Shown in pieces: positions 1,618-11,690 of a stretch of DNA of 20,058 nucleotides. Below the pieces are notes generated by a model. The model made no database searches. It had not been told where the DNA came from and saw nothing but the letters and a program-made list of their open reading frames with translations. The first letter of the stretch is position 1. The number at the start of each line of letters is the position of its first letter. The stretch lies in the NCBI GenBank assembly GCA_021927905.1, contig BLLK01000037.1, positions 1 to 20,058 on the forward strand, in the 5' to 3' direction. The translations under genes and the position numbers were made by a program. This DNA comes from Chaetoceros tenuissimus. Its lineage: Eukaryota; Bacillariophyta; Thalassiosirophyceae; Chaetocerotales; Chaetocerotaceae.

Positions 1618-1622
1618 CACAG
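1618..1622. repeat. Target site duplication of the Copia element, left copy
   Basis: CACAG directly abuts the outer edge of the left LTR and is repeated at 11686-11690 just outside the right LTR. Five base pairs is the usual target duplication size for Copia integrases. Confidence 0.85.
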
Positions 1623-1927
1623 CGTTGAAATACCTCTCCTTTGGTAGCTATGTGCTCCTCAAGTGCTGTAGTATATAATACTCTGTAGCCAGATGAAGTA
1701 CTTGGTCTTCTATAGATTTTAGTTTACTCAATACAGAAACTGATGGTTTCTATTTAATGAGATGAAGCAACACAGATGATGCTGCCGTTACGTGTTGCTT
1801 CATCTCCTCCACACATTCTTCATTCTGAGCTCTTACTGCTTCTGCGTACATTTGCTTTCGCCGTTCTACAATTTTAGCATGATTACTACTACTGTCATTG
1901 TTTGCTGTTTTCTTATTATTTCCAACG
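1623..1927 (-). repeat. 3' LTR of the Copia element
   Basis: 305 bp, aligning end to end with 11395-11685 with six substitutions and one extra 14-bp stretch (about 1764-1777). The element's last open frame crosses the inner edge of this LTR and stops inside it at 1750-1752. The purine tract next to the inner edge is weak (sense strand GAAGGAG, about 1930-1937), so the second-strand primer is not obvious. Confidence 0.92.
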
Positions 1928-3680
1928 GGCTCCTTCGGGTGAGTGTACCCTGTATATGACACACTTATATGGTCCCTTCCCATTATTGCTCTCCTGAAGT
2001 CTGTAAAACCCTTACCCATTATTGGCTTAGTAATTATTTGTTAGTTGGACAATACACTACCTCAACGTTGCCATTCTTGATTCTGTCTGTTGACCAGAAC
2101 TGTTTAATGGCCATGTGCTTCATATTTGACGTACAAGAATCCTGACCATTCTTCAAAATCTTGATCTCTGACTCATTATCTTTTGCTAGCACATTACTTT
2201 CAAGCTTGTACCCTTGTTCTTCCATGAACATTTCGAAGTAAATGTTCTTTGGTAGTCCTTCGCTCGTCCCTACTAGTTCGCATTCAGTAGAACTATGTGT
2301 ATTCATCTTTTGTTTGTAGGCTTTCTGATCTAAAACGCCTGTTCCCATCGTAATTATCTGTCCTGTGTGTCCCCTCATATCATCGTGTACAGCATGCGCT
2401 GAATCTGTCATTGTTAGCATGTGCAATAAGTCATCAGCTCCTACGGTTCTGAGATTGTCTTGGGTTGTCTTTATCCAACTCATCATTCTCATAAATTTGT
2501 GACAGTCCTCTCTATTTGGCTCGTGCACCCTAGTCATCAGAAAGGTATTGGTAAACTCTACGTCTGGTCTGCTTCTTTTCATAGCCCATGCTACCTTCAT
2601 TATATACTTCAACAGCATGTCAGCCTTCTCTCTGGTTAGCTTTGGTGATTTCTTGTTTACTTTGAGTAACCACTTCGCATGAGGTGTTTTGTATTTTCAA
2701 TTTTGTACCATACCTAATTCCTCCTCTAAATCTTTGATCATTTGCTTGATGTATGGCACTGTTCCAATGTCCACCTTGCCATCTCCTCTGAAATAGAAGT
2801 CTATACCCAGGAATTCAAGCTTGTTTCCTCGCTGTATCGTCAAGCCTGGGAACCGTTCGTTGATCTTGTTAATCAGGTCAGTGACTGCCTTAGTTTGACC
2901 ACCAACAATGTTGTCATCTACGTACCACCCAATCGTGAGTTGTTTTCCATCCACTACTTTGTTCGTGACACACTTATCTACCTTGTTTATCTGGAAACCC
3001 TCTTGTATTAACACGTCTGCAAACATGTTATACCACAATAAAGCGGACTCGATCATGCCATAAAGAGCCTTCAAAATTCTGCAGTACAACACTTTCTTCC
3101 CTTTTTCATACCTTACACTCTCAGTGAAGTCTGGGTTAACCTCTAACATTATGTCTACGAATTGCCCTTCAAATTTTAGTAGTGCAAACTTGTCGTCAGG
3201 TAAGTCGGTGTGCAAGTAAGCCCCAGGGACGTCAAACACTGCCACATCTCTCTTTTCGAATGCAAAGATGGTTACCAATGCTATCAGTGATTTGACCGAC
3301 ATGGTTGATGATGATGTCTCTTCTCTAGGTAGGAACTTCCTTTACCCACTTCTGTCACTACAACATCTACCCTTGATTTTTCCATCCCTTTTCTCCTTGA
3401 TCAAGTTTATTGCTCTCAACGCCTTTGCCTTCTGTTCCGCAGTCGAAGAGTCATAATCCACTACTCCTAGTACACACATGTCGTTTAGCTGCTTGTATTC
3501 TTTTATCAACGCTGCTACTGCTTGTTCCTGGAATATCTTAATTCCTTCTGTTGCTGTCATTTGGTTAAACATGTAATCTACTGCTCTTGAGTACAACTGT
3601 CTGGTAGTGGTGTGATTGAGATCTTCTGCTAGGTTCGAGAAGTTGGTTGAACTCCTCTTTTTGCATATAACTTTTTCCAC
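1750..3680 (-). pseudogene. Copia pol, reverse transcriptase and RNase H part
   Basis: Sense is minus. The N-terminal reverse transcriptase stretch KALRAINLIKEKRDGKIKGR (3680-3345) is separated by a TAA (3342-3344) from the main polymerase domain (3302-2700). That domain has DVPGAYLH and the catalytic YVDD box at 2913-2924. An in-frame TGA (2697-2699) separates it from the thumb and RNase H region (to 2034). RNase H acidic sites are visible as TDSAHAVHDDMRGHTG (about 2405), SSTECELVG (about 2286) and DNESEIK (about 2183). After CPTNK a small frame-disrupting deletion (near 2030) removes the residues expected before TKPIMGKGF. The frame then continues from 2019 through the LTR edge to a TAG at 1750-1752, giving about 58 LTR-encoded residues rich in N, K and E. 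In life it would convert element RNA to DNA in cytoplasmic particles. This copy is inactive. Confidence 0.88.
1759..1806. repeat. 15-bp perfect inverted repeat created by an insertion in the 3' LTR
   Basis: GAGATGAAGCAACAC at 1759-1773 is the exact reverse complement of 1792-1806, with an 18-base spacer. The other LTR lacks the extra 14 bases and there only 7 bp can pair, so the insertion copied the complementary arm. Confidence 0.85.
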
Positions 3681-4755
3681 CAGTACTACCTATGTTGCTC
3701 AAAGGGTCTTGCGGTGGTCTTCTGGCTCTTTGGGATCTCTGAGGTCTCTCCTCTGTAGTATTACTATTGGTGTCTTCGTTATTATCTTCTCCTTTATATT
3801 CAGACCCAGTATCCTCATCATTTGATTCAATACTATTGTCTTCTACATCTGCATCATCTTTGCTCCTTACTTCAACGTCTTCGCTCCTTACTTCAAATTC
3901 CTCGCTCCTTGGTTCTTCAAGTTCATCACTGATGTCTACGCTCCTTACTTCTTCTTCTAGATCATTTGCTCCTGGGTTGTCAGGTAATAGTTTGTCGTCA
4001 CTCTCATTTACGTCCGAAGTATGGAAAGAGCTGTCATCTGATGAGTCCAAGTCTCCTTCACTACTGGTGGATGATACAGTGACATCGTCATATACATAGG
4101 TGCTACCGTCATCTGAATCTCCCTCGTCTATGTCAGTGTCATTGATGGTCATGTTATTTCCAGGTGACATACCAAGTTTTGGTATTCCATTCTCATCTAG
4201 GAAGTCCGCTTTCTCTCGTGCAGCTAACTCGTGTACTCTCTCAATTACCTCGTCAGTGATAGCTAATTCATCCCATTGGTGACCACGTATTCTCTTTCCA
4301 GTGTCTAATGACATGAAGTAGTACCCTCCTTGAGAGTTGGATGGTCATAGCGCCATTGCACAAACGGATCTTGGTGTCCTATTGTTCTTTGATTCCCTGA
4401 ACACCAGACAATATGCCCCAAAAGTTACTTCAAGATTTCCAGCGTCATGTGGTCCTCGACCTTCTATTACAGCTCCAGGGCTTAAGTCCTTCGAAACACT
4501 TCCTTCTCTCAAATGTTGGTTGATCCAGTAAAATACGTCTATGATGTTTTCGTCTACAATGATCTTTGGGACCTGTTTATAAGGTAATTTGTCCCAATAA
4601 CATCTCTGTCTGTCTTTGACAAATCTGATTTCTCTTTTGATGAATGGGTTATGCTCATTTGCAGCACAAGTATCGACTGTAGCATTCACCTTTCCTTTGA
4701 TCCTATCAAACTCATTATCTCCATTCACTAGTTCAATGGTAAAACCTCTATTGTT
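3565..4755 (-). pseudogene. Copia integrase C-terminal half and acidic linker
   Basis: This continues, across the LINE insertion, the integrase that starts at 9124-8828. GFTIELVNGDNEFDRIKG holds the second catalytic aspartate. TCAANEHNPFIKREIRFVKD follows where the third catalytic residue, a glutamate, is expected; by my alignment it may be the lysine of FIKRE. An in-frame TGA at 4345-4347 falls between CAMAL and PSNSQGGYYF, where related elements usually have arginine. After SLDTGKRIRGHQW comes a long Asp/Ser/Glu-rich linker (about 4180-3800) with repeated VRSED/VRSKD units, then RRPPQDP and KSYMQKEEF. The frame then shifts (within 3565-3680) into the reverse transcriptase frame. The linker is the usual low-complexity connection between integrase and reverse transcriptase in Copia polyproteins. 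Confidence 0.82.
4740..4755. repeat. Target site duplication of the LINE, left copy
   Basis: TAAAACCTCTATTGTT is repeated perfectly at 8812-8827. It is Copia integrase coding sequence: the integrase translation reads smoothly from the right copy into the left copy when the LINE is removed. Confidence 0.95.
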
Positions 4756-4756
4756 G

Positions 4757-7141
4757 GAGGCATTTGGTATACACCCACAGTTTGTCTTTGACGGATCTGA
4801 TCATAGATCAATTGAAATAGCATTCTCTAAAGAGCGATTGATGGGCGACCCAATCCCCTTGACATGGACGCAACCATCAATAAATGCAAACCATCCAAAA
4901 CAAGTAAAGTCATTTGTAGAAGAGCTACTAGCGCTCCATAGAAAAGGGAGAACAATGGAGGCTCTGGAAGCAGCAGAGGAGAAGCTTAAAAGCAATGATC
5001 CACCAGTACAACTAGAAGGACTGAAGAAGGTACTGAGCATTGAAAAGCGAGCAATGACGGATTATTTAACCAGTGCAACACGTAAAGTTCTCAAGCCAAG
5101 GAGTAACATTGATGTGCCTTGGTCGGTGAAACTAGCTATCAGTAAGAAAGCAAGAATAGCAGCCAGGAAAGAATGGGAGAAGGATAAGGAGAATGACGAA
5201 GCATACAACAAGTGGAAAGAATCGCGTACCAAATATGAAAAAGCATTAGTCAGAGCTCCTGAGCTGAGAAAAGAAATGTATGATTCAATGGTAGAAGAAA
5301 TGTCTTACAGAATGCATTGTTCTGAAGATTCAGCAATACGTGCAATTTACAATTGTGAAGTCTTGAGGGACCTTTGTGCAAAGAACAGGACAGTCTTAAA
5401 AGGTGCAAGAGGAAAGACGATGACACATATCCTTGTTGGTGAACCGGTTGAATCAGTGAAAACACAGTGGATGAAAATCACTGACAGTGAACTCATTGAA
5501 GAAATATTACTACGTTTTAATGAACGGCACTTGCAGCAGTCAACAATCTCTCCATTCGCGCATGGCCCACTACGACAAATATTGGGAGAAGATGGCAAAG
5601 GCAGCCAAGCATTCTTGGACGGTCTGATTGACTCGGAGGTAGCTGAAGAGTATGGTCACCTAGCAACAGCGACGAATTTAATCATCGAGGAAATGAAAAT
5701 GAAAGAGATAGGTGGAGAACCAGCAAAGTTCGAATGGACCTTCGATGAGGCAGACTACAAGGAAGCATTTGGCAAAGCACGTCTCAACACAGCACCAGGT
5801 TTTTCAGGCTTGAACATGCATACATTAAGAGCGATATCAACAAATAAAGAGCTTCGTACAATCTATGCCAAGGTGCTAGAGCTACCATTCCGATATGGAT
5901 TCACTTATCCTCGATGGGAAAAGACAGTTCAAGCCTTACTTATGAAAGAGCTACTGCCATTTGTACATAGGTGGAGAATTCTGGAACTCATGGAACAAGA
6001 CTACAACGGGGTCCTTAAGTTAGTAGTAGGACGTAAATTCGCAGCACACGACCAGGAATTCTTCCAAAACAAAGAGTCATATGGAGCAGTAAAGAAGAAG
6101 AGTGCACATGACGCACTCAACTCGGTGCAGAATGTTCTGGAATATAGTAGGATAATGAGTAGTCCAATCGCAATAGCTCCCAAAGACGCCACAGGCTGCT
6201 TCGATCTACTGCGGAGGGAAATCATAAAAGTAATCCAAGAATCCAAGGGAATGCCAAAGGAGTTTGGTGAATGTGTAGTGCAAACACTTCATGGCATGGA
6301 GAGGCATATCCGCTTAGCAGGAAAGTTATCAAAGAAGAGTGTCAAATATAACAGCAACAACAACATTGGTGGTATAGGGCAAGGAAGTGGAGAAGGTCCA
6401 CAGGACGGAAATGACATGATTGGATTGCTTAAAGATGTCCATACCAAAACAACTCGAGGATGCACATTACTTCATCCGGATGGAGTGCAGTCAGTAACCA
6501 GACATGGAGGCGGCTTCATTGATGACCAAATCGATGTGATATCACTGGACACGCAGGTTGCAGAACAGGAGAAAGAGTTAGTTGAAGATATCCTTCTTCA
6601 GTGGCAAAACTTGCTAAATGTATCCGGAGGTGATCTAAGTATTAACAAATGCACAGTAGGATTCGCCCAGTACAAATTTGTCAAATCCATAAAGAGAGAC
6701 TACGTAAAGATGAAGAGCATCAATGAGAATGAGACACAAATAGAGCTTCAACCCAATAACCAGCTCTTGCAAAAGGAAGTATTGAAACGACTGGAACCAA
6801 ACAACGGAGAGAAGTATCTAGGAGTAAGGAATGCTCTAAGCGGTTCTAATAGTGATGAATTCAAGGCGCGAAAGTTACAAGTAGAGGAAATGGCAGGACG
6901 AGTGTCCATGTCACATATCACAAGACAACAAGCATACATGATTCACTCCATTCAGTATAAGCCAGCGATCATATATCCTCTACAGCACACAACGTTTACG
7001 ACAAAGCAGTGCAAAGCAATACAAGTTCCGATGACAAATGCACTGTTGCCAAAAATGGGATTCAATAGACTAACCCTAACCCTAACAGTACATTGCGACT
7101 CAACCAAGCCACATCAAGCAAATAATGGGAATACAGAGTGA
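4757..7141 (+). CDS. LINE ORF: endonuclease remnant plus reverse transcriptase
   Basis: The open frame extends upstream to an ATG at 4616, but its first 46 residues are antisense of Copia integrase and are fortuitous. The first ATG inside the element is at 4841. Numbering from 4616: SDHRSIEI (residues 61-68) is the end of an AP-type endonuclease. A charged helical linker fills about 85-250. Reverse transcriptase motifs follow: NTAPGFSGLNMHTL (about 390), motif A KDATGCFD (catalytic Asp about 524), motif B-like GGIGQGSGEGP (about 585) and the catalytic FIDD box (about 635-637, 6515-6526). EKYLGVRN then marks the thumb. Similarity ends after LLPKMGFNR (about 7069). The next residues, LTLTLT, translate a telomeric repeat, and the last 20 or so look like frame-shifted sequence. 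Stop TGA at 7139-7141. It is otherwise free of internal stops. It would make cDNA at a nicked target site, but without the endonuclease this copy is probably inactive. Confidence 0.85.
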   Translation, partial: EAFGIHPQFVFDGSDHRSIEIAFSKERLMGDPIPLTWTQPSINANHPKQVKSFVEELLALHRKGRTMEALEAAEEKLKSNDPPVQLEGLKKVLSIEKRAMTDYLTSATRKVLKPRSNIDVPWSVKLAISKKARIAARKEWEKDKENDEAYNKWKESRTKYEKALVRAPELRKEMYDSMVEEMSYRMHCSEDSAIRAIYNCEVLRDLCAKNRTVLKGARGKTMTHILVGEPVESVKTQWMKITDSELIEEILLRFNERHLQQSTISPFAHGPLRQILGEDGKGSQAFLDGLIDSEVAEEYGHLATATNLIIEEMKMKEIGGEPAKFEWTFDEADYKEAFGKARLNTAPGFSGLNMHTLRAISTNKELRTIYAKVLELPFRYGFTYPRWEKTVQALLMKELLPFVHRWRILELMEQDYNGVLKLVVGRKFAAHDQEFFQNKESYGAVKKKSAHDALNSVQNVLEYSRIMSSPIAIAPKDATGCFDLLRREIIKVIQESKGMPKEFGECVVQTLHGMERHIRLAGKLSKKSVKYNSNNNIGGIGQGSGEGPQDGNDMIGLLKDVHTKTTRGCTLLHPDGVQSVTRHGGGFIDDQIDVISLDTQVAEQEKELVEDILLQWQNLLNVSGGDLSINKCTVGFAQYKFVKSIKRDYVKMKSINENETQIELQPNNQLLQKEVLKRLEPNNGEKYLGVRNALSGSNSDEFKARKLQVEEMAGRVSMSHITRQQAYMIHSIQYKPAIIYPLQHTTFTTKQCKAIQVPMTNALLPKMGFNRLTLTLTVHCDSTKPHQANNGNTE
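7070..7086. repeat. Interstitial telomeric repeat (CTAACCCTAACCCTAAC)
   Basis: 17 bp of perfect CCCTAA repeat (TTAGGG on the minus strand), nearly three units. It lies between the last recognisable reverse transcriptase residues and the start of the RNase H frame. Confidence 0.9.
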
Positions 7142-8717
7142 GGAATGGACTGACGACAGTACTTTGGCGGTAGTAGCAGCATTGAGAGAGGGAAGGACCA
7201 TCACAATCTTTGGTGACGGCTCTGTGAAGGATGGACGAGGTAGCCATGCCTATAGAATAATACCACATGACAATTTGTATGATGATAGGGGCACTTTGAC
7301 AGCTGGAGCAGTAACTAATGGGGACCGGAGGTGGATCACCTCACTCAGAACAGAGCAGATGTCGCAACTAGGAGCACTATATACAATTCTTGCTATAGCA
7401 GTCACAAATGAGGTAACAGACTCAAAGTCAACCTTTCTCTTTCGCTACGACAATCAAGAGAGTCTTCGACGGGTGAAAATAGTCCATTCCTTTTACACAG
7501 ATGCATCACCATTTGCAACTGATTATGACGTATGGGCAGAGATAACGAGAGTGTGTGAGAGATTCCCAAATGTCATCATAGAAGAGTCTTGGGTAAAAGG
7601 GCATCAGGATGATGATTCAGAAGATGTTACCATCGAAGCACAGCATAATATAGACATGGATGCATTGGCAGAGGTGCATCGTGAGTCAGATGAAACAATG
7701 CCACAGGCACCATTGTTCTGTAGTGAACGAGCACAGATATTAATGGACGGGATTGCGGTCACTCAAGGATTCCACCACCAATTACGGGTGCATTTATTAG
7801 GAGACAACCTGAGGCAGTATATCAAGGGTAAGACCGGCTGGACAGACAATGAATTCAATACAGTCAACTGGCAAGCACTAGAGCGGTACCTCAAGGCAGT
7901 ATCTCCAGGCAAACGAACCAACATTATCAAAATGCAACATGGATGGCACCACACCTGTGAAAGAGATGCCATGTTCAAGGAGTCTGGCAATTTCAAATCG
8001 GGTCACACAAGCACATTCTGCCCATTCGGGTGTGGTGAGAGCGACTACCGCTGGCATTTCTTGCGATGCACAAAGTCTCCAATATCGAAAGAAGCAGCAA
8101 GTGAGACAAGGAAACTTCATAACGTATTCAAACGATACAAAGTACATCGTGAGATGCAAAGTGTGATACTGCAACGAGTGAAGGCTACGCTACAAAGTCA
8201 ACGAATTGTACCTATGCAACTAGATGATCATACAGATCCTTTGCTCCAAGAAGCACTGGACGAACAAGACATATTAGGGTGGGATCAATTCCTGCTCGGG
8301 AGACAGTCCAAGCGCTGGGAGGAATTACAGCACAAGGAATACTCGAGACTGGCTGCACAGTTACCAGCAAACTCCTCGCTCCCTGCACACTTCAAATCTA
8401 CAGTACTCTCCAAAATGATGATCCAAGAGGCAACTTACATCGTGCTGAACCGATGGCAGGTGCATAACGAAGTGGCCCATACAGCTATTACTGCGAAGGA
8501 ATATATCATAGACCGAGACAAAGCCAAGGTTCAAGTTCGGGCACTACTATCTGCACCACGACCAGACCACAGAGCATTGACAAGACTGATACCTGAGACA
8601 GTTGAGACACTTTTGTCACAACCGCTAGAACGCATTCAAGAATGGATCGCTACATGGAAGGCTTCTAAAGCTTACATAGCGCCATCACTTATCACAACAT
8701 ATATGCAAACAACATAA
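7125..8717 (+). CDS. LINE ORF: RNase H with zinc-finger-like C-terminal region
   Basis: 530 residues from ATG at 7125 to TAA at 8715-8717, overlapping the upstream frame by 17 bp in a different frame. The frame actually opens right after the telomeric tract (TAA at 7083-7085), so residues upstream of the ATG are also coding-like. RNase H type I signature: FGDGSVKDGRGS (Asp31), TEQMSQLGAL (Glu77), FRYDNQES (Asp109), then WVKGHQDDD and AQHNIDMDALA (His160, Asp177 or 179). This domain removes RNA from the RNA-DNA hybrid. Residues 299-315 form a C-x3-C-x7-H-x3-C cluster (CPFGCGESDYRWHFLRC), typical of the zinc-binding tail of many LINE proteins. The remaining 200 residues are charged and alpha-helical in character, without a domain I recognise. 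Originally this was probably one polyprotein with the reverse transcriptase. The separation appears secondary. Confidence 0.85.
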   Translation: MGIQSEEWTDDSTLAVVAALREGRTITIFGDGSVKDGRGSHAYRIIPHDNLYDDRGTLTAGAVTNGDRRWITSLRTEQMSQLGALYTILAIAVTNEVTDSKSTFLFRYDNQESLRRVKIVHSFYTDASPFATDYDVWAEITRVCERFPNVIIEESWVKGHQDDDSEDVTIEAQHNIDMDALAEVHRESDETMPQAPLFCSERAQILMDGIAVTQGFHHQLRVHLLGDNLRQYIKGKTGWTDNEFNTVNWQALERYLKAVSPGKRTNIIKMQHGWHHTCERDAMFKESGNFKSGHTSTFCPFGCGESDYRWHFLRCTKSPISKEAASETRKLHNVFKRYKVHREMQSVILQRVKATLQSQRIVPMQLDDHTDPLLQEALDEQDILGWDQFLLGRQSKRWEELQHKEYSRLAAQLPANSSLPAHFKSTVLSKMMIQEATYIVLNRWQVHNEVAHTAITAKEYIIDRDKAKVQVRALLSAPRPDHRALTRLIPETVETLLSQPLERIQEWIATWKASKAYIAPSLITTYMQTT

Positions 8718-8811
8718 ACTCCTTCCCCTTTTTCATCCACCCAATTGGGCCGATGTAATGAAGTTGATACTCATAATGTAGTGATTAACGTCAGTAAAGA
8801 TTTTATTATTA
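8718..8811 (+). other. LINE 3' untranslated region and TTATTAT tail
   Basis: 94 bp between the RNase H stop codon and the right target duplication, ending in ATTTTATTATTAT-like simple sequence. No further coding is seen. Confidence 0.8.
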
Positions 8812-8827
8812 TAAAACCTCTATTGTT
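8812..8827. repeat. Target site duplication of the LINE, right copy
   Basis: Perfect 16-bp match to 4740-4755. Confidence 0.95.
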
Positions 8828-9124
8828 ATGCATTGCTATTGCATTGTTTAATGCTTTCACTATCTCTTCTGTTGGCCTGTAATATGTGACTCTTCCTGTT
8901 GCACTTAGTTTTTGCTTATTGAAAGTGACTCCAATGATGAAGAGGATATTCCTTCCCTTGATTATGAGGTATGGGGCATAGTTGCTGTAAAAGAAGTCTA
9001 TGTCAAGTATCTCATTTGGATGGTGGCGTACCAGATTCGATGGTAGAGCGGTTCTGAGTGCTTTGTTGTTTTTGTTGGCTCGCTTTTGTACTGTCTTGCC
9101 TACAATGAGTTGTTCTGCCGCCCC
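8828..9124 (-). pseudogene. Copia integrase, N-terminal part of catalytic core
   Basis: Minus strand, in the same frame as Gag-protease but after an in-frame TGA (9125-9127). It reads GAAEQLIVGKTVQKRANK, a basic segment, then EILDIDFFYSN with the first catalytic aspartate (about 8995), GRNILFIIGV, and RPTEEIVKALNNAIAMHN. The reading continues into NNRGFTIEL within the LINE target duplication and then at 4755 downwards, so the LINE split the integrase between its first and second catalytic aspartates. No ATG starts here; it was made as part of the Gag-Pol polyprotein. Confidence 0.85.
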
Positions 9125-11005
9125 TCAAAAAATTGCTCTTGCTCTTGTGACGTCCTCTGCTGTAACTGGGGCATTGATGATGCTGTTTCCTTGGCCACTA
9201 AGTATACACTTGAACTCTGCATCTGAAGGCCAACCCATCCTGCCTTGTAGTATTCTTGCATTCTCCGCTCCTTCCACTTCAGCATTGGAGAAAAAATTCT
9301 TGTTAGCTTTAACAGTTGAAAAGAAGAGGTGATGGAAGGAAGTAGATGTGTGAACTCGATTTAGGTTACTGCTACTGTTGACATCGAAACCGTAAAGACC
9401 ATTGCTTAATTGTTTGAATTCCAAGATGTAATCATTGGAGATAAAAACAAAGAAACTACTGGAATGACGTGAATCTTTGAAAACCCTGTAATACTGTTCC
9501 AGATCCGCCATACTCAGGATGTTAGCCAGAGACTTGCTATTGAAATAAGCAGTCAGAGCTGGTAACAACTTGATATGACCTTTCTTTTCATAGTCCATGA
9601 ATCCTCCATTTGTATGTCCTTGGATCGGTAAACACACACCTATTCCCACCATCAACCCCCTGATAAAGAAAGAAGAAAAAGTTGAGCCAGTGTCAACAAT
9701 AATAAGTGACTCTGGAAGCCGAGGCTGAGACTGGACGAAAATATAGCCAAACTGCGAAAGGATAATGTAATTGCCTGTGCCATTGTTATCGTCAGGGCAA
9801 TCGTTCGCGTAATGTCCAGGACAATTGCATCTGTAACATGTGATGTCTGCACGAAGTGGTCCTGTTCTTCCTGCCACTGGTTGACACGTCACGGTACCTC
9901 CATTCTGTGCAAACTGCATTCCGTTTCGTCCTGCTCCTCTGTTTCTTTGTGAATTATTACCTCTATCACTATTGTTATTGTTGCTACTCTTCCAGTGAGT
10001 CATCATGTGGATTGCTCCTGCCATAGTTGTAGGGTAGTTGTCTTGACCCTGTAAAAGGCTATTGTGTAGCTGGTCCCACAGTCCTCCGAATCTCTTCACA
10101 TCTGCATTCATAAGGAACGCCATCGCTGCATATTTTTCTCTCACATCCTCATCAGTTATACTTGCATCTTTGGCCTTTTCTCTCTTCAGCAAATCCTCAT
10201 GGTCCACAATATCAACGTTGGCCTGTGATACTAACTCTTGGGCATTCTGGAAGTCCACTTGGTAATCCTCTAAAGACTTCCCCATTTGCTCGGTGCGATA
10301 AAAATCTCTGGTCGCTGTCAATGCTGTGTTGATAGCATTCGAGGAGGTAGTAACGCCGTGCACGATTCTCTTGATGCTCTTCAATAGCCAAATAGCGTTG
10401 TAATCATTCTGTTGTGTCTCATAATCATGCTCAGCTCTTAGATTCTCAACTAACGCTTTGGTACATTGACCTAAAATGATTCCCTACAGCTTTGCCATGT
10501 TCTCTTGTAGGAGACTTTTCTTCTTTGAGAACTGATTCATTTCCTGCGCGTATAATGCATTTGTTGGTGCCATCATCATACTGTTTTGCTGCATCCTGAT
10601 TGCTCTCTCGGCATCTGTCTCATTCTCACCTGGTTCTGCTTGTGTGATGCCCAAGTATTCCACTAGTTTATCAATGTTTGGGAGCTCGTTTCTAATAAGG
10701 ACATGCGGGTCTTCTAGTTCTGCTACAGCTCTGGACAGGACACTTGGGCTCTTGAAGTTCACTAGGATGTAAGTAGCCAGCTTCTTGGTAAAGTTAGCTG
10801 TTTTCTGGTTCGTACTCTCCGCACGCGTACCCAAGACTGGTAACTCCATAATTTGACCTTTGAAGTTCTTGAATGAGTTCCCTCCACCACTTCTGTTGTT
10901 GTGTCTATTTCTCCTGTCTACATCTGGACCATTCACGTTTCCAGTTTGTTCCTGCTGCGACTGATCTGCCGCCAGTTGTTCTTGTTACTGCTGGTTCTCA
11001 CTCAT
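9125..11005 (-). pseudogene. Copia Gag and protease
   Basis: Likely start is the ATG at 11003-11005 (MSENQQ). The same frame then runs to 9125 with two internal stops: TAA at 10985-10987 in a glutamine-rich run, and TAG at 10484-10486 just before GIILGQCTKALVENL. Open pieces are 10984-10487 and 10483-9128. Capsid-type helices include LWLLKSIKRIV-like and YQVDFQNAQELV segments. The CCHC zinc knuckle CYRCNCPGHYANDC lies at about 9838-9797, preceded by an Asn/Arg-rich RNA-binding stretch. The aspartic protease active site is VDTGSTFSSFF (DTG at 9694-9686). The section ends with VTAEDVTRARAIF before the TGA at 9125-9127 that precedes integrase. Gag would package element RNA in virus-like particles and the protease would cut the polyprotein. 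This copy is inactive. Confidence 0.87.
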
Positions 11006-11011
11006 TTTGCT

Positions 11012-11328
11012 CTACACTAGCTTCAAATTTTCTGGTAGCCTGGTTGTTGTTCTCCCACTCGTTTCCAGTTTAATCAACACGAACACTTTCCCAATATGTG
11101 TCACTATAGCTATATCTCTGTACTTCCCGTACTTGGCCTTGGTTAGCACTTTCACACGGGCTCCAACACTAGTCTTTTCTCAGAGCTACTAGGAAGCTTC
11201 TCTTTACCTTTACTTTCTTTCTCTAACTTTAAGTTGTTCAATTGGTTCGAAAGCAATTCCACAGTAGTAGCTTTCAGTAATTTGATCTCTTCCAATAGGT
11301 TGTCGTTGCTAACCTGACTAATGGTCAT
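11012..11328 (-). pseudogene. Small upstream Copia reading frame: coiled coil plus KOW-like segment
   Basis: Between the primer-binding region and gag, a 59-codon frame (11328-11152) starts MTISQVSNDNLLEEIKLL and is rich in Leu/Glu/Lys spaced like a short coiled coil. It stops shortly after GKEKLPSSSEKR. In the adjacent frame the sequence continues sensibly as VGARVKVLTKAKYG, then DIAIVTHIGKVFVLIKL and RLPENLKLV, ending at a TAG (11012-11014), two codons before the gag ATG. The second part has the alternating hydrophobic and glycine pattern of a KOW/SH3-like barrel. A minus-one shift or a lost base in the AAAA run near 11172 would join the two into about 105 residues. It may be the N-terminal part of Gag or a separate protein. 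I cannot name a family. Confidence 0.6.
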
Positions 11329-11380
11329 AAACCGCTGTAGTTAGGTTGTGCAAAATTTGGCAATTTGGGTTATCCTAGTT

Positions 11381-11394
11381 TTAAATAGAAACCA
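11381..11394 (-). promoter_or_regulatory. Primer-binding region of the Copia element
   Basis: Directly next to the inner edge of the 5' LTR, the sense strand reads TGGTTTCTATTTAA. TGG is the usual start because tRNAs end in CCA, but the rest does not look like the complement of a tRNA T-arm. Instead, all 14 bases are exactly complementary to a sense-strand segment within the LTR (11516-11529, and 1744-1757 in the 3' LTR). Confidence 0.7.
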
Positions 11395-11685
11395 CGTTGA
11401 AATACCTCTCCTTTGGTAGCTATGTGCTCCTCAAGTGCTGTAGTATATAATACTCTGTAGCCAGATGAAGTACTTGGTCTTCTATAGATTTTAGTTTACT
11501 CAATACAGAAACAGATGGTTTCTATTTAATGAGATGATGCTGCCTTTACGTGTTGCTTCATCTCCTCCACACATTCTTCATTCTGAGCTCTTACTGCTTC
11601 TGCGTACGTTTGCTTTCGCCGTTCTACAATTTTAGCATGATTACTACTACTGACATTGTTTGCTGTTTTCTTATTATTTCAAACA
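11395..11685 (-). repeat. 5' LTR of the Copia element
   Basis: 291 bp. On the sense strand it begins TGTTTGAAATAATAAG and ends GGTATTTCAACG. It lacks the 14-bp insertion of the other LTR. The promoter should lie in its upstream half. I see no unambiguous TATA box, though AT-rich candidates exist. Differences from the 3' LTR are six substitutions, four of them transversions. Confidence 0.92.
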
Positions 11686-11690
11686 CACAG
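11686..11690. repeat. Target site duplication of the Copia element, right copy
   Basis: CACAG adjoining the 5' LTR, matching 1618-1622. Confidence 0.85.

What the first reader, a model, noticed from the sequence alone, without database searches (positions are those of the whole stretch)
11381..11529. Copia element with an LTR segment perfectly complementary to its own primer-binding site: possible self-priming
Seen directly: the first 14 sense-strand bases after the 5' LTR (11394 down to 11381, TGGTTTCTATTTAA) are the exact reverse complement of sense-strand TTAAATAGAAACCA inside the LTR (11516-11529, also 1744-1757). The match starts at the very first base after the LTR. A chance 14-base match in a 291-bp LTR is roughly one in a million at even composition. 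Known: Tf1/sushi-type elements prime reverse transcription by folding the 5' end of their own RNA onto the primer-binding site, while Copia elements normally use a tRNA or half-tRNA. Inference: if transcription starts just upstream of 11529, the RNA 5' end could fold back and prime synthesis. That would be unusual in Copia.
Basis: partly seen in the sequence, partly recalled or inferred. Interest (0 to 1): 0.8.

Follow-up and report, generated by a model that had tools for sequence, protein, structure and literature searches.

The report
Self-priming Copia retrotransposons in a diatom
A group of jumping genes in a diatom appears to start copying itself by folding the front end of its own RNA back as a primer, rather than borrowing a transfer RNA from the cell.

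Summary
The window holds a degraded Copia element (minus strand, 1623-11685, TSD CACAG). The first 14 nt after its 5' LTR perfectly complement an LTR segment. The host is probably a diatom. One RT clade in this genome (99/99) has five families with five different 14-nt sites, each perfectly matched by its own 5' LTR. Of 14 base pairs, 11 vary on both sides and 70 of 70 cells pair. In all five the helix ends at the LTR/PBS junction on one side and directly after an initiator-like TCA(TT) on the other. One family first looked like an exception, but its true PBS was exactly the one its LTR segment predicted. A possible sister clade (F5/F6) shows a looser version. Eleven other Copia loci lack it (3-5 nt); one of them matches a tRNA-Asn anticodon arm 14/14. 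The best reading is Tf1-like self-priming in Copia. Transcript start, RNA cleavage and priming are inferred, and the tRNA check is incomplete. Self-priming was already proposed for plant TAR-lineage Copia, so this is a new variant of a known kind, with strong covariation support.

The parts
1618..1622 (.). target-site duplication CACAG, left copy
   Evidence: read
1623..1927 (-). 3' LTR (305 bp, with 14 more bases than the 5' LTR)
1744..1757 (-). self-primer 14-mer TTAAATAGAAACCA, 3' LTR copy
2724..3395 (-). Copia-type reverse transcriptase region (RVT_2), broken by a stop codon
4756..8811 (+). later insertion (16-bp direct repeats at 4740 and 8812) that interrupts the Copia element; not part of the priming system
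9125..10384 (-). gag-like frame with a CCHC zinc knuckle
11381..11394 (-). primer-binding site, sense TGGTTTCTATTTAA, first 14 bases after the 5' LTR
11395..11685 (-). 5' LTR (291 bp)
11516..11529 (-). self-primer 14-mer TTAAATAGAAACCA, 121 nt before the PBS
11530..11532 (-). TCA directly before the primer (initiator-like TCATT); predicted transcript start
   Evidence: function inferred
11686..11690 (.). target-site duplication CACAG, right copy
   Evidence: read

Best explanation
This is a copy of a Copia family that starts reverse transcription by self-priming, as Tf1 does. Transcription starts at an initiator (TCA|TT) in the LTR, so the RNA begins with the 14-nt segment (inferred). That 5' end folds over a 113-121 nt R-U5 loop and pairs with the PBS directly after the LTR (complementarity shown, pairing predicted). 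A nuclease, probably the element's RNase H, cuts after nucleotide 14; the freed 3' end sits exactly at the LTR/PBS junction and is extended into U5 and R (inferred). When plus-strand DNA later copies the primer, the new PBS is rewritten from the LTR segment, which would keep the two in step as families diverge (inferred). The window copy itself is dead: its RT has a stop codon and a 4-kb insert interrupts it.
For: Anchored complement from the first PBS base is 14 nt in 6 of 6 loci of one RT clade (99/99) and in the window. None of 2000 shuffled LTRs reached it for any of the six. It is 3-5 nt in 11 of 11 other Copia loci with LTRs. Across the five families 70 of 70 cells pair, 11 of 14 pairs changed on both sides, covariation is 0.857 against 0.269 for shuffles (0 of 500) and at most 0.215 when slid. 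Leaving out F3 or F4 still leaves 10 varying, mirrored positions. F3 and F4 differ at 4 primer positions and all 4 are mirrored in the PBS. Family L053 seemed an exception until its LTR segment predicted TTGTTTCTTTTTAA; that was found once, exactly, after ...CCAACG, 115 nt downstream. All five primers follow TCA and start with TT. The helix has mean pairing probability 0.97-0.98 in 8 of 8 leader fragments, though each fragment was cut at the helix ends, which favours it. PBSs of F1-F6 match no more than 7 nt of 19 tRNAs, while one outside family (L094) matches tRNA-Asn 14/14. Window and L054 copies are about 82% identical inside, but primer and PBS are 28/28 identical.
Against: No RNA data: transcript start, cleavage and priming are not observed. 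F1's PBS starts with TGG, as tRNA sites do. The tRNA check is weak: 19 genes read, 63 of 2031 candidates scored, no initiator tRNA recognised among them; and of 8 site entries from families outside the clades only L094 matched, the others 5-7 nt like F1-F6, so a missing match says little. The five families share descent, so changes are not all independent. F3 rests on one locus (L049) whose LTRs are only 83% alike; its 3' LTR carries TTCTTTAAACCTAA, which differs at 3 positions from its 5' LTR primer and so does not match its own PBS. F4's 3' LTRs lack the primer segment in both copies, and L053's 3' LTR ends early. At two C64 junctions the PBS carries an extra base. No related genome was available for an outside test.
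Confidence: 0.86

Rival explanations
1. A host tRNA (3' end ...TTAAATAGAAACCA) is the real primer, and the LTR copy is a chance or regulatory match.
For: In F1 the PBS begins with TGG, the complement of a tRNA's CCA end. Another Copia family here has a tRNA-type site (L094 with tRNA-Asn). The host tRNA set was not read in full.
Against: The PBSs of L053, F2, F3 and F4 lack TGG yet match their own 5' LTRs over 14 nt. None of the T-arm pattern hits listed coincides with a tRNA place listed (compared by eye; searches list about 100 of 333 and 100 of 212 hits; I ran no tRNA finder on them). None of 19 tRNAs matches an F1 to F6 site over more than 7 nt.
Confidence: 0.07
2. The paired segments form an RNA structure used for something else (packaging, dimer formation, translation control), with another primer.
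For: The predicted helix is strong, and structured leaders serve such roles in retroelements (general knowledge).
Against: It does not explain why the helix ends exactly at the LTR/PBS junction in all five families, while 11 loci outside the clades do without it.
Confidence: 0.06
3. Chance or an inherited inverted repeat without function.
For: F1, L053 and F2 primers share 12 of 14 bases pairwise, so part of the agreement is descent.
Against: 11 of 14 pairs changed on both sides with no mismatch in 70 cells; about 1e-5 chance matches for the window alone.
Confidence: 0.01

Closest known systems
Tf1 of Schizosaccharomyces pombe (Ty3/gypsy, Tf1/sushi group)
   Same: [quoted passage not shown] cut between 11 and 12; PMC7175516, passages seen). 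Here 14 bases, same geometry.
   Different: Tf1 is Ty3/gypsy; this element has a Copia-type RT. In Tf1 the mechanism was demonstrated (PMC4600332, passages), here it is inferred from sequence.
Plant TAR lineage of Ty1/copia (Houba, Osr-1)
   Same: A Copia lineage predicted to self-prime (PMC6317226, passages seen).
   Different: Plants; the passages seen give no covariation or primer length, and no sequence was compared here.
Tj1 of Schizosaccharomyces japonicus
   Same: LTR segment complementary to the PBS, proposed self-primer with a proposed cleavage site (PMC4600332, passages seen).
   Different: Related to Tf1, not Copia.
Fungal GalEa Copia elements with a Conserved Hairpin Site
   Same: Copia elements without a tRNA site, with an RNA hairpin at the PBS (PMC5445492, passages seen).
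   Different: The authors never found an LTR inverted repeat complementary to their hairpin.
Half-tRNA-primed Copia elements (Osser, Bryco, Bianca; PMC6317226, passages seen)
   Same: Copia superfamily; the same host genome has a family with such a site (L094, tRNA-Asn anticodon arm).
   Different: The primer is a tRNA fragment, not the element's own RNA.

Membership tests
Ty1/Copia superfamily (Pseudoviridae) | Copia-type RT (Pfam RVT_2) | tested here: met
   Window 2697-3302 1.5e-13; L052 1.8e-17; L054 1.4e-14
Ty1/Copia superfamily (Pseudoviridae) | integrase before RT in the polyprotein | tested here: inconclusive
   About 770 residues lie between zinc knuckle and RT and about 300 after RT in L052, which leaves more room for it before RT than after; SH3_retrovirus at 840-885 before RT at 1185 in L054, below cut-off; no integrase core family found; structure model too weak, pLDDT 35.8
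Ty1/Copia superfamily (Pseudoviridae) | paired LTRs and short target-site duplication | tested here: met
   Window LTRs and 5-bp TSD; 14 measured F1 LTR pairs differ by 0 or 1 base
Tf1-type self-priming | LTR segment complementary to the PBS from its first base | tested here: met
   14 nt in 6 of 6 clade loci and the window
Tf1-type self-priming | the two segments covary | tested here: met
   exception inside L049, whose 3' LTR carries a different 14-mer
Tf1-type self-priming | the complementary segment is the 5' end of the RNA | not testable with these tools
   Only indirect: TCATT initiator-like motif at its start
Tf1-type self-priming | RNase H cleavage and priming from the freed 3' end | not testable with these tools
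   none
Tf1/sushi group (Ty3/gypsy) | Ty3/gypsy-type RT | tested here: not met
   RT is RVT_2 (Copia type)
tRNA-primed Copia | PBS complementary to a host tRNA | tested here: inconclusive
   No match over 7 nt for F1-F6 in 19 tRNAs, against 14/14 for L094; but seven other outside entries also matched only 5-7 nt, so the tRNA set is too small
fungal GalEa CHS elements | palindromic sequence at the PBS position instead of a PBS | tested here: not met
   No palindrome in the five PBSs (read); L044 in the same genome has one
plant TAR lineage | RT/IN phylogeny within TAR | not tested
   no reference sequences at hand

The most novel reading that the evidence does not exclude
Two related Copia clades in diatoms use a self-primer defined at one end by the core-promoter initiator and at the other by the LTR end. 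Each replication cycle rewrites the PBS from the LTR, so primer sequences can drift freely and tRNA dependence is lost for good. Self-priming would then have arisen in Copia, separately from Tf1/sushi and perhaps separately from plant TAR elements, before these two clades split. (Odds lowered from 0.5 in my draft: the tree program flags the join of the two clades as long branches meeting, and the F5 helix stops 5 nt short of the initiator A.)
Probability: 0.42. Interest if true: 0.7.

Novelty: new variant of a known kind. Interest (0 to 1): 0.62.

Why it matters
In the papers I saw, demonstrated self-priming is that of Tf1, a Ty3/gypsy element; in Copia it is a prediction for one plant lineage. 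Here a natural set of families gives covariation evidence for it in a second, non-plant Copia group. Young-looking copies exist (14 LTR pairs with 0-1 differences), so transcript 5' ends and strong-stop DNA can be checked directly. It bears on how retroelements escape dependence on host tRNA and on whether self-priming arose more than once.

Tried and rejected
Treating L053 as a counterexample: with LTRs set by the repeat search it showed only 5 nt. I then saw that its 3' LTR ends early and that its LTR holds a primer-like segment; the predicted PBS was there exactly. This was a correction after a miss, and I report it as such.

Ten of 30 fetched Copia stretches gave no usable LTR pair and were dropped from the counts: L042, L046, L047, L051, L059, L060, L062, L064, L065 (a repeat there was not taken for LTRs), L095. 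Of five 5'-end stretches fetched later, L088 (F2) and L092 (F4) had the 14-nt pair, L089 and L091 had none in the stretch, and L090 has a 14-nt inverted repeat not at an LTR end, which I did not count. A further F2 pair on C65 lies just outside L090.

Matches elsewhere in the PBS region of outside families, not at its first base, reach 8 nt (L039, 10 of 200 shuffles) and 9 nt (L043, offset 13, 2 of 200). I took these as chance.

tRNA patterns with a T-arm gave no more hits than the reversed-pattern control (106 and 106 against 107 and 117) and slightly more (164 and 169 against 150 and 125, family copies included); they were of little use. The L039/L045 site resembles the initiator-tRNA anticodon arm (recalled), but the one genome hit I followed was another element, not a tRNA gene. 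The structure model of the putative integrase was too weak to use.

The F5/F6 match alone is modest (4 to 11 of 2000 shuffles). With a bulge the helix has 15 pairs in each: in F6 from the A of TCATT, in F5 from 5 nt after that A. Energies are -14.8 and -12.2 kcal/mol against shuffled means of -5.5 and -4.3; the lowest of 500 shuffles were -13.8 and -12.4, so F6 is not beyond all shuffles.

Full report
What is there. The window carries a Copia retrotransposon on the minus strand, 1623-11685, flanked by the 5-bp duplication CACAG (read). It has a CCHC gag-like frame and a Copia-type RT (RVT_2) with a stop codon. Against a relative (L054) it aligns at about 82% identity and is interrupted by a 4-kb insertion. 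The 14 bases after the 5' LTR and their complement in the LTR are exactly as reported. The chance expectation at the LTR's composition is about 1.1e-5.

The genome and host. The assembly has 41.0 Mb in 68 contigs. Sixty-three light-harvesting protein matches were found; the best-scoring one hits FCPI-7 of entry 6ly5 at 4.4e-103, which I recall as a diatom (Chaetoceros gracilis) complex. I take the host to be a diatom. The assembly is unnamed.

The family in the window (F1). Fifty-six exact hits of the 14-mer were found. Seventeen LTR/PBS junctions have both segments exact: 16 flagged, plus L016, seen. Two junctions on C64 have an extra T in the PBS. Fourteen LTR pairs measured differ by 0 (7 pairs) or 1 (7 pairs) base; the window's pair differs by 5 mismatches and 14 gap positions; two of the 17 pairs tried were not measured. 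So other copies look young and the window copy old.

Related families. RVT_2 gave 133 matches in the genome. I fetched 30 stretches around a chosen set and could set LTRs in 20. In the RT tree of 29 rows, the window family, L053, F2 (L052, L055), F3 (L049) and F4 (L061) form a clade with support 99/99. Their sites differ: TGGTTTCTATTTAA, TTGTTTCTTTTTAA, TTGTTTCTATTGAA, TTAGATTAAACGAA, TTAGGCTTAAAGAA. Each 5' LTR holds the exact complement 113-121 nt upstream. Counted from the first PBS base the match stops at 14 nt in all six loci and the window; in F2, F3 and F4 it also includes the last LTR base.

Covariation. With one row per family, 70 of 70 cells pair, 3 pairs never vary and 11 changed on both sides; 0 of 500 shuffles reach any of the five measures; slid versions reach at most 56.9% paired. 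These families are related, so the shuffles are not a probability. Dropping F3 or F4 leaves 10 varying positions. The sharpest single case is F3 against F4: 4 of 14 primer bases differ, and all four changes are mirrored in the PBS, inside flanks that are mostly alike (103 of 118 columns identical between primer and PBS).

A complication. L049, the only F3 locus, has LTRs only 83% alike. Its 5' LTR matches its PBS. Its 3' LTR carries TTCTTTAAACCTAA at the same place, in the same flanks, with 3 differences from the 5' LTR segment and one from the F4 primer. Such an element is not a simple insertion; I think it a recombinant whose 5' LTR and PBS came together. It counts against treating F3 as a clean family.

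Two fixed ends. One end of the helix is the LTR/PBS junction in all five families. The other is directly after TCA, with the primer starting TT. [quoted passage not shown] the one it used is the diatom Thalassiosira pseudonana (PMC3599244, abstract and passages). This fits a transcript that begins at or one base before the primer. It is inference; no RNA data were at hand.

A possible sister group. F5 (L058, L063) and F6 (L066) lie in a clade next to the first (93/87, not starred; the tree program flags this join as long branches meeting, so it may be false). They show 9 nt (F5) and 8-9 nt (F6; its LTR end is uncertain by one base) of perfect match from the PBS start, with different sequences. 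With one bulge each has 15 pairs; the helix begins at the A of a TCATT in F6 and 5 nt after that A in F5. I read this as the same device in looser form, with moderate confidence.

Controls. Eleven Copia loci outside these clades have only 3-5 nt of anchored complement. Fifteen site entries (two identical) were tested against 19 tRNA genes. Only L094 matched fully (tRNA-Asn, 14/14). F1-F6 matched 5-7 nt, but so did the other seven outside entries (5-7 nt), so the lack of a tRNA match does not by itself mark out this clade. The tRNA listing is incomplete (63 of 2031 candidates scored). Exact searches with the F2, F3/F4 and L053 14-mers show primer/PBS pairs at 4, 3 and 3 places. The remaining hits are 3' LTR copies, seven L045-type leaders, and places I did not identify (12 of 31 for F2).

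Literature. PMC6317226 (passages) predicts self-priming for the plant TAR lineage of Ty1/copia and for Tcn1 chromoviruses, and cites an earlier proposal for Houba and Osr-1. PMC7175516 (passages) describes Tf1: the first 11 bases pair with the PBS and RNase H cuts between 11 and 12. PMC5445492 (passages) reports fungal GalEa elements with a hairpin site and no LTR complement. A search for self-priming, LTR retrotransposon and diatom returned two papers; I saw term passages of both and no report of self-primed diatom Copia in them. PMC2806351 on diatom retrotransposons does not hold the terms tRNA, primer binding or self-prim in its main text. Other searches: (listings only, apart from the papers named here). 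Subscription papers are mostly not held, so this is not proof of absence in print.

Verdict. Self-priming in this Copia clade is very likely. Shown: complementarity, its end points, covariation across families, absence in the 11 outside loci tested. Inferred: transcript start, folding in the cell, RNase H cleavage, priming, and rewriting of the PBS from the primer.

Noticed in passing
window 4740-8827: A roughly 4.06-kb insert with 16-bp direct repeats (TAAAACCTCTATTGTT) holds frames of 841 and 530 aa without a convincing Pfam or solved-structure match. The 530-aa protein has 79 matches in the genome, itself included, down to about 24% identity, some in open frames of up to 1893 aa: a mobile element family I could not name.
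   Followed up: partly
L045, 22 nt after the 5' LTR; six further places: A family with an initiator-tRNA-like site (recalled) also carries the F2 primer-binding sequence TTGTTTCTATTGAA a few bases further on, though its own stretch lacks the complement. It could be a relic, a second site or chance.
   Followed up: partly
L049, 5' LTR 1828-1841 and 3' LTR 7628-7641 (sense orientation): The two LTRs of one element carry different primer segments in the same flanks; only the 5' one matches the PBS. Possibly a recombinant between related families.
   Followed up: partly
L044, first 12 bases after the 5' LTR: Palindrome TACTTCGAAGTA at the PBS position, which recalls the palindromic site of fungal GalEa elements (PMC5445492).
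   Followed up: no
L040, L041, L043: PBS CGCTTCCTCTGCGC looks complementary to the D-arm of an initiator tRNA (recalled; the initiator tRNA gene was not found).
   Followed up: no
L094, after the 5' LTR: PBS matches the tRNA-Asn anticodon arm 14/14: a half-tRNA-type site in the same genome.
   Followed up: partly
L061 and L092/L093 (F4): Both 5' LTRs hold the primer segment, but both 3' LTRs lack a block of about 119 nt that contains it; the two copies lie about 27 kb apart and may be one duplicated insertion.
   Followed up: partly
C64 junctions (L020, L037): Two F1 junctions have a PBS with one extra T against an unchanged LTR segment.
   Followed up: no
L051, L059, L060: A long first frame and a long second frame in register, parted by a single stop codon; no LTR pair was found in the stretches.
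   Followed up: no
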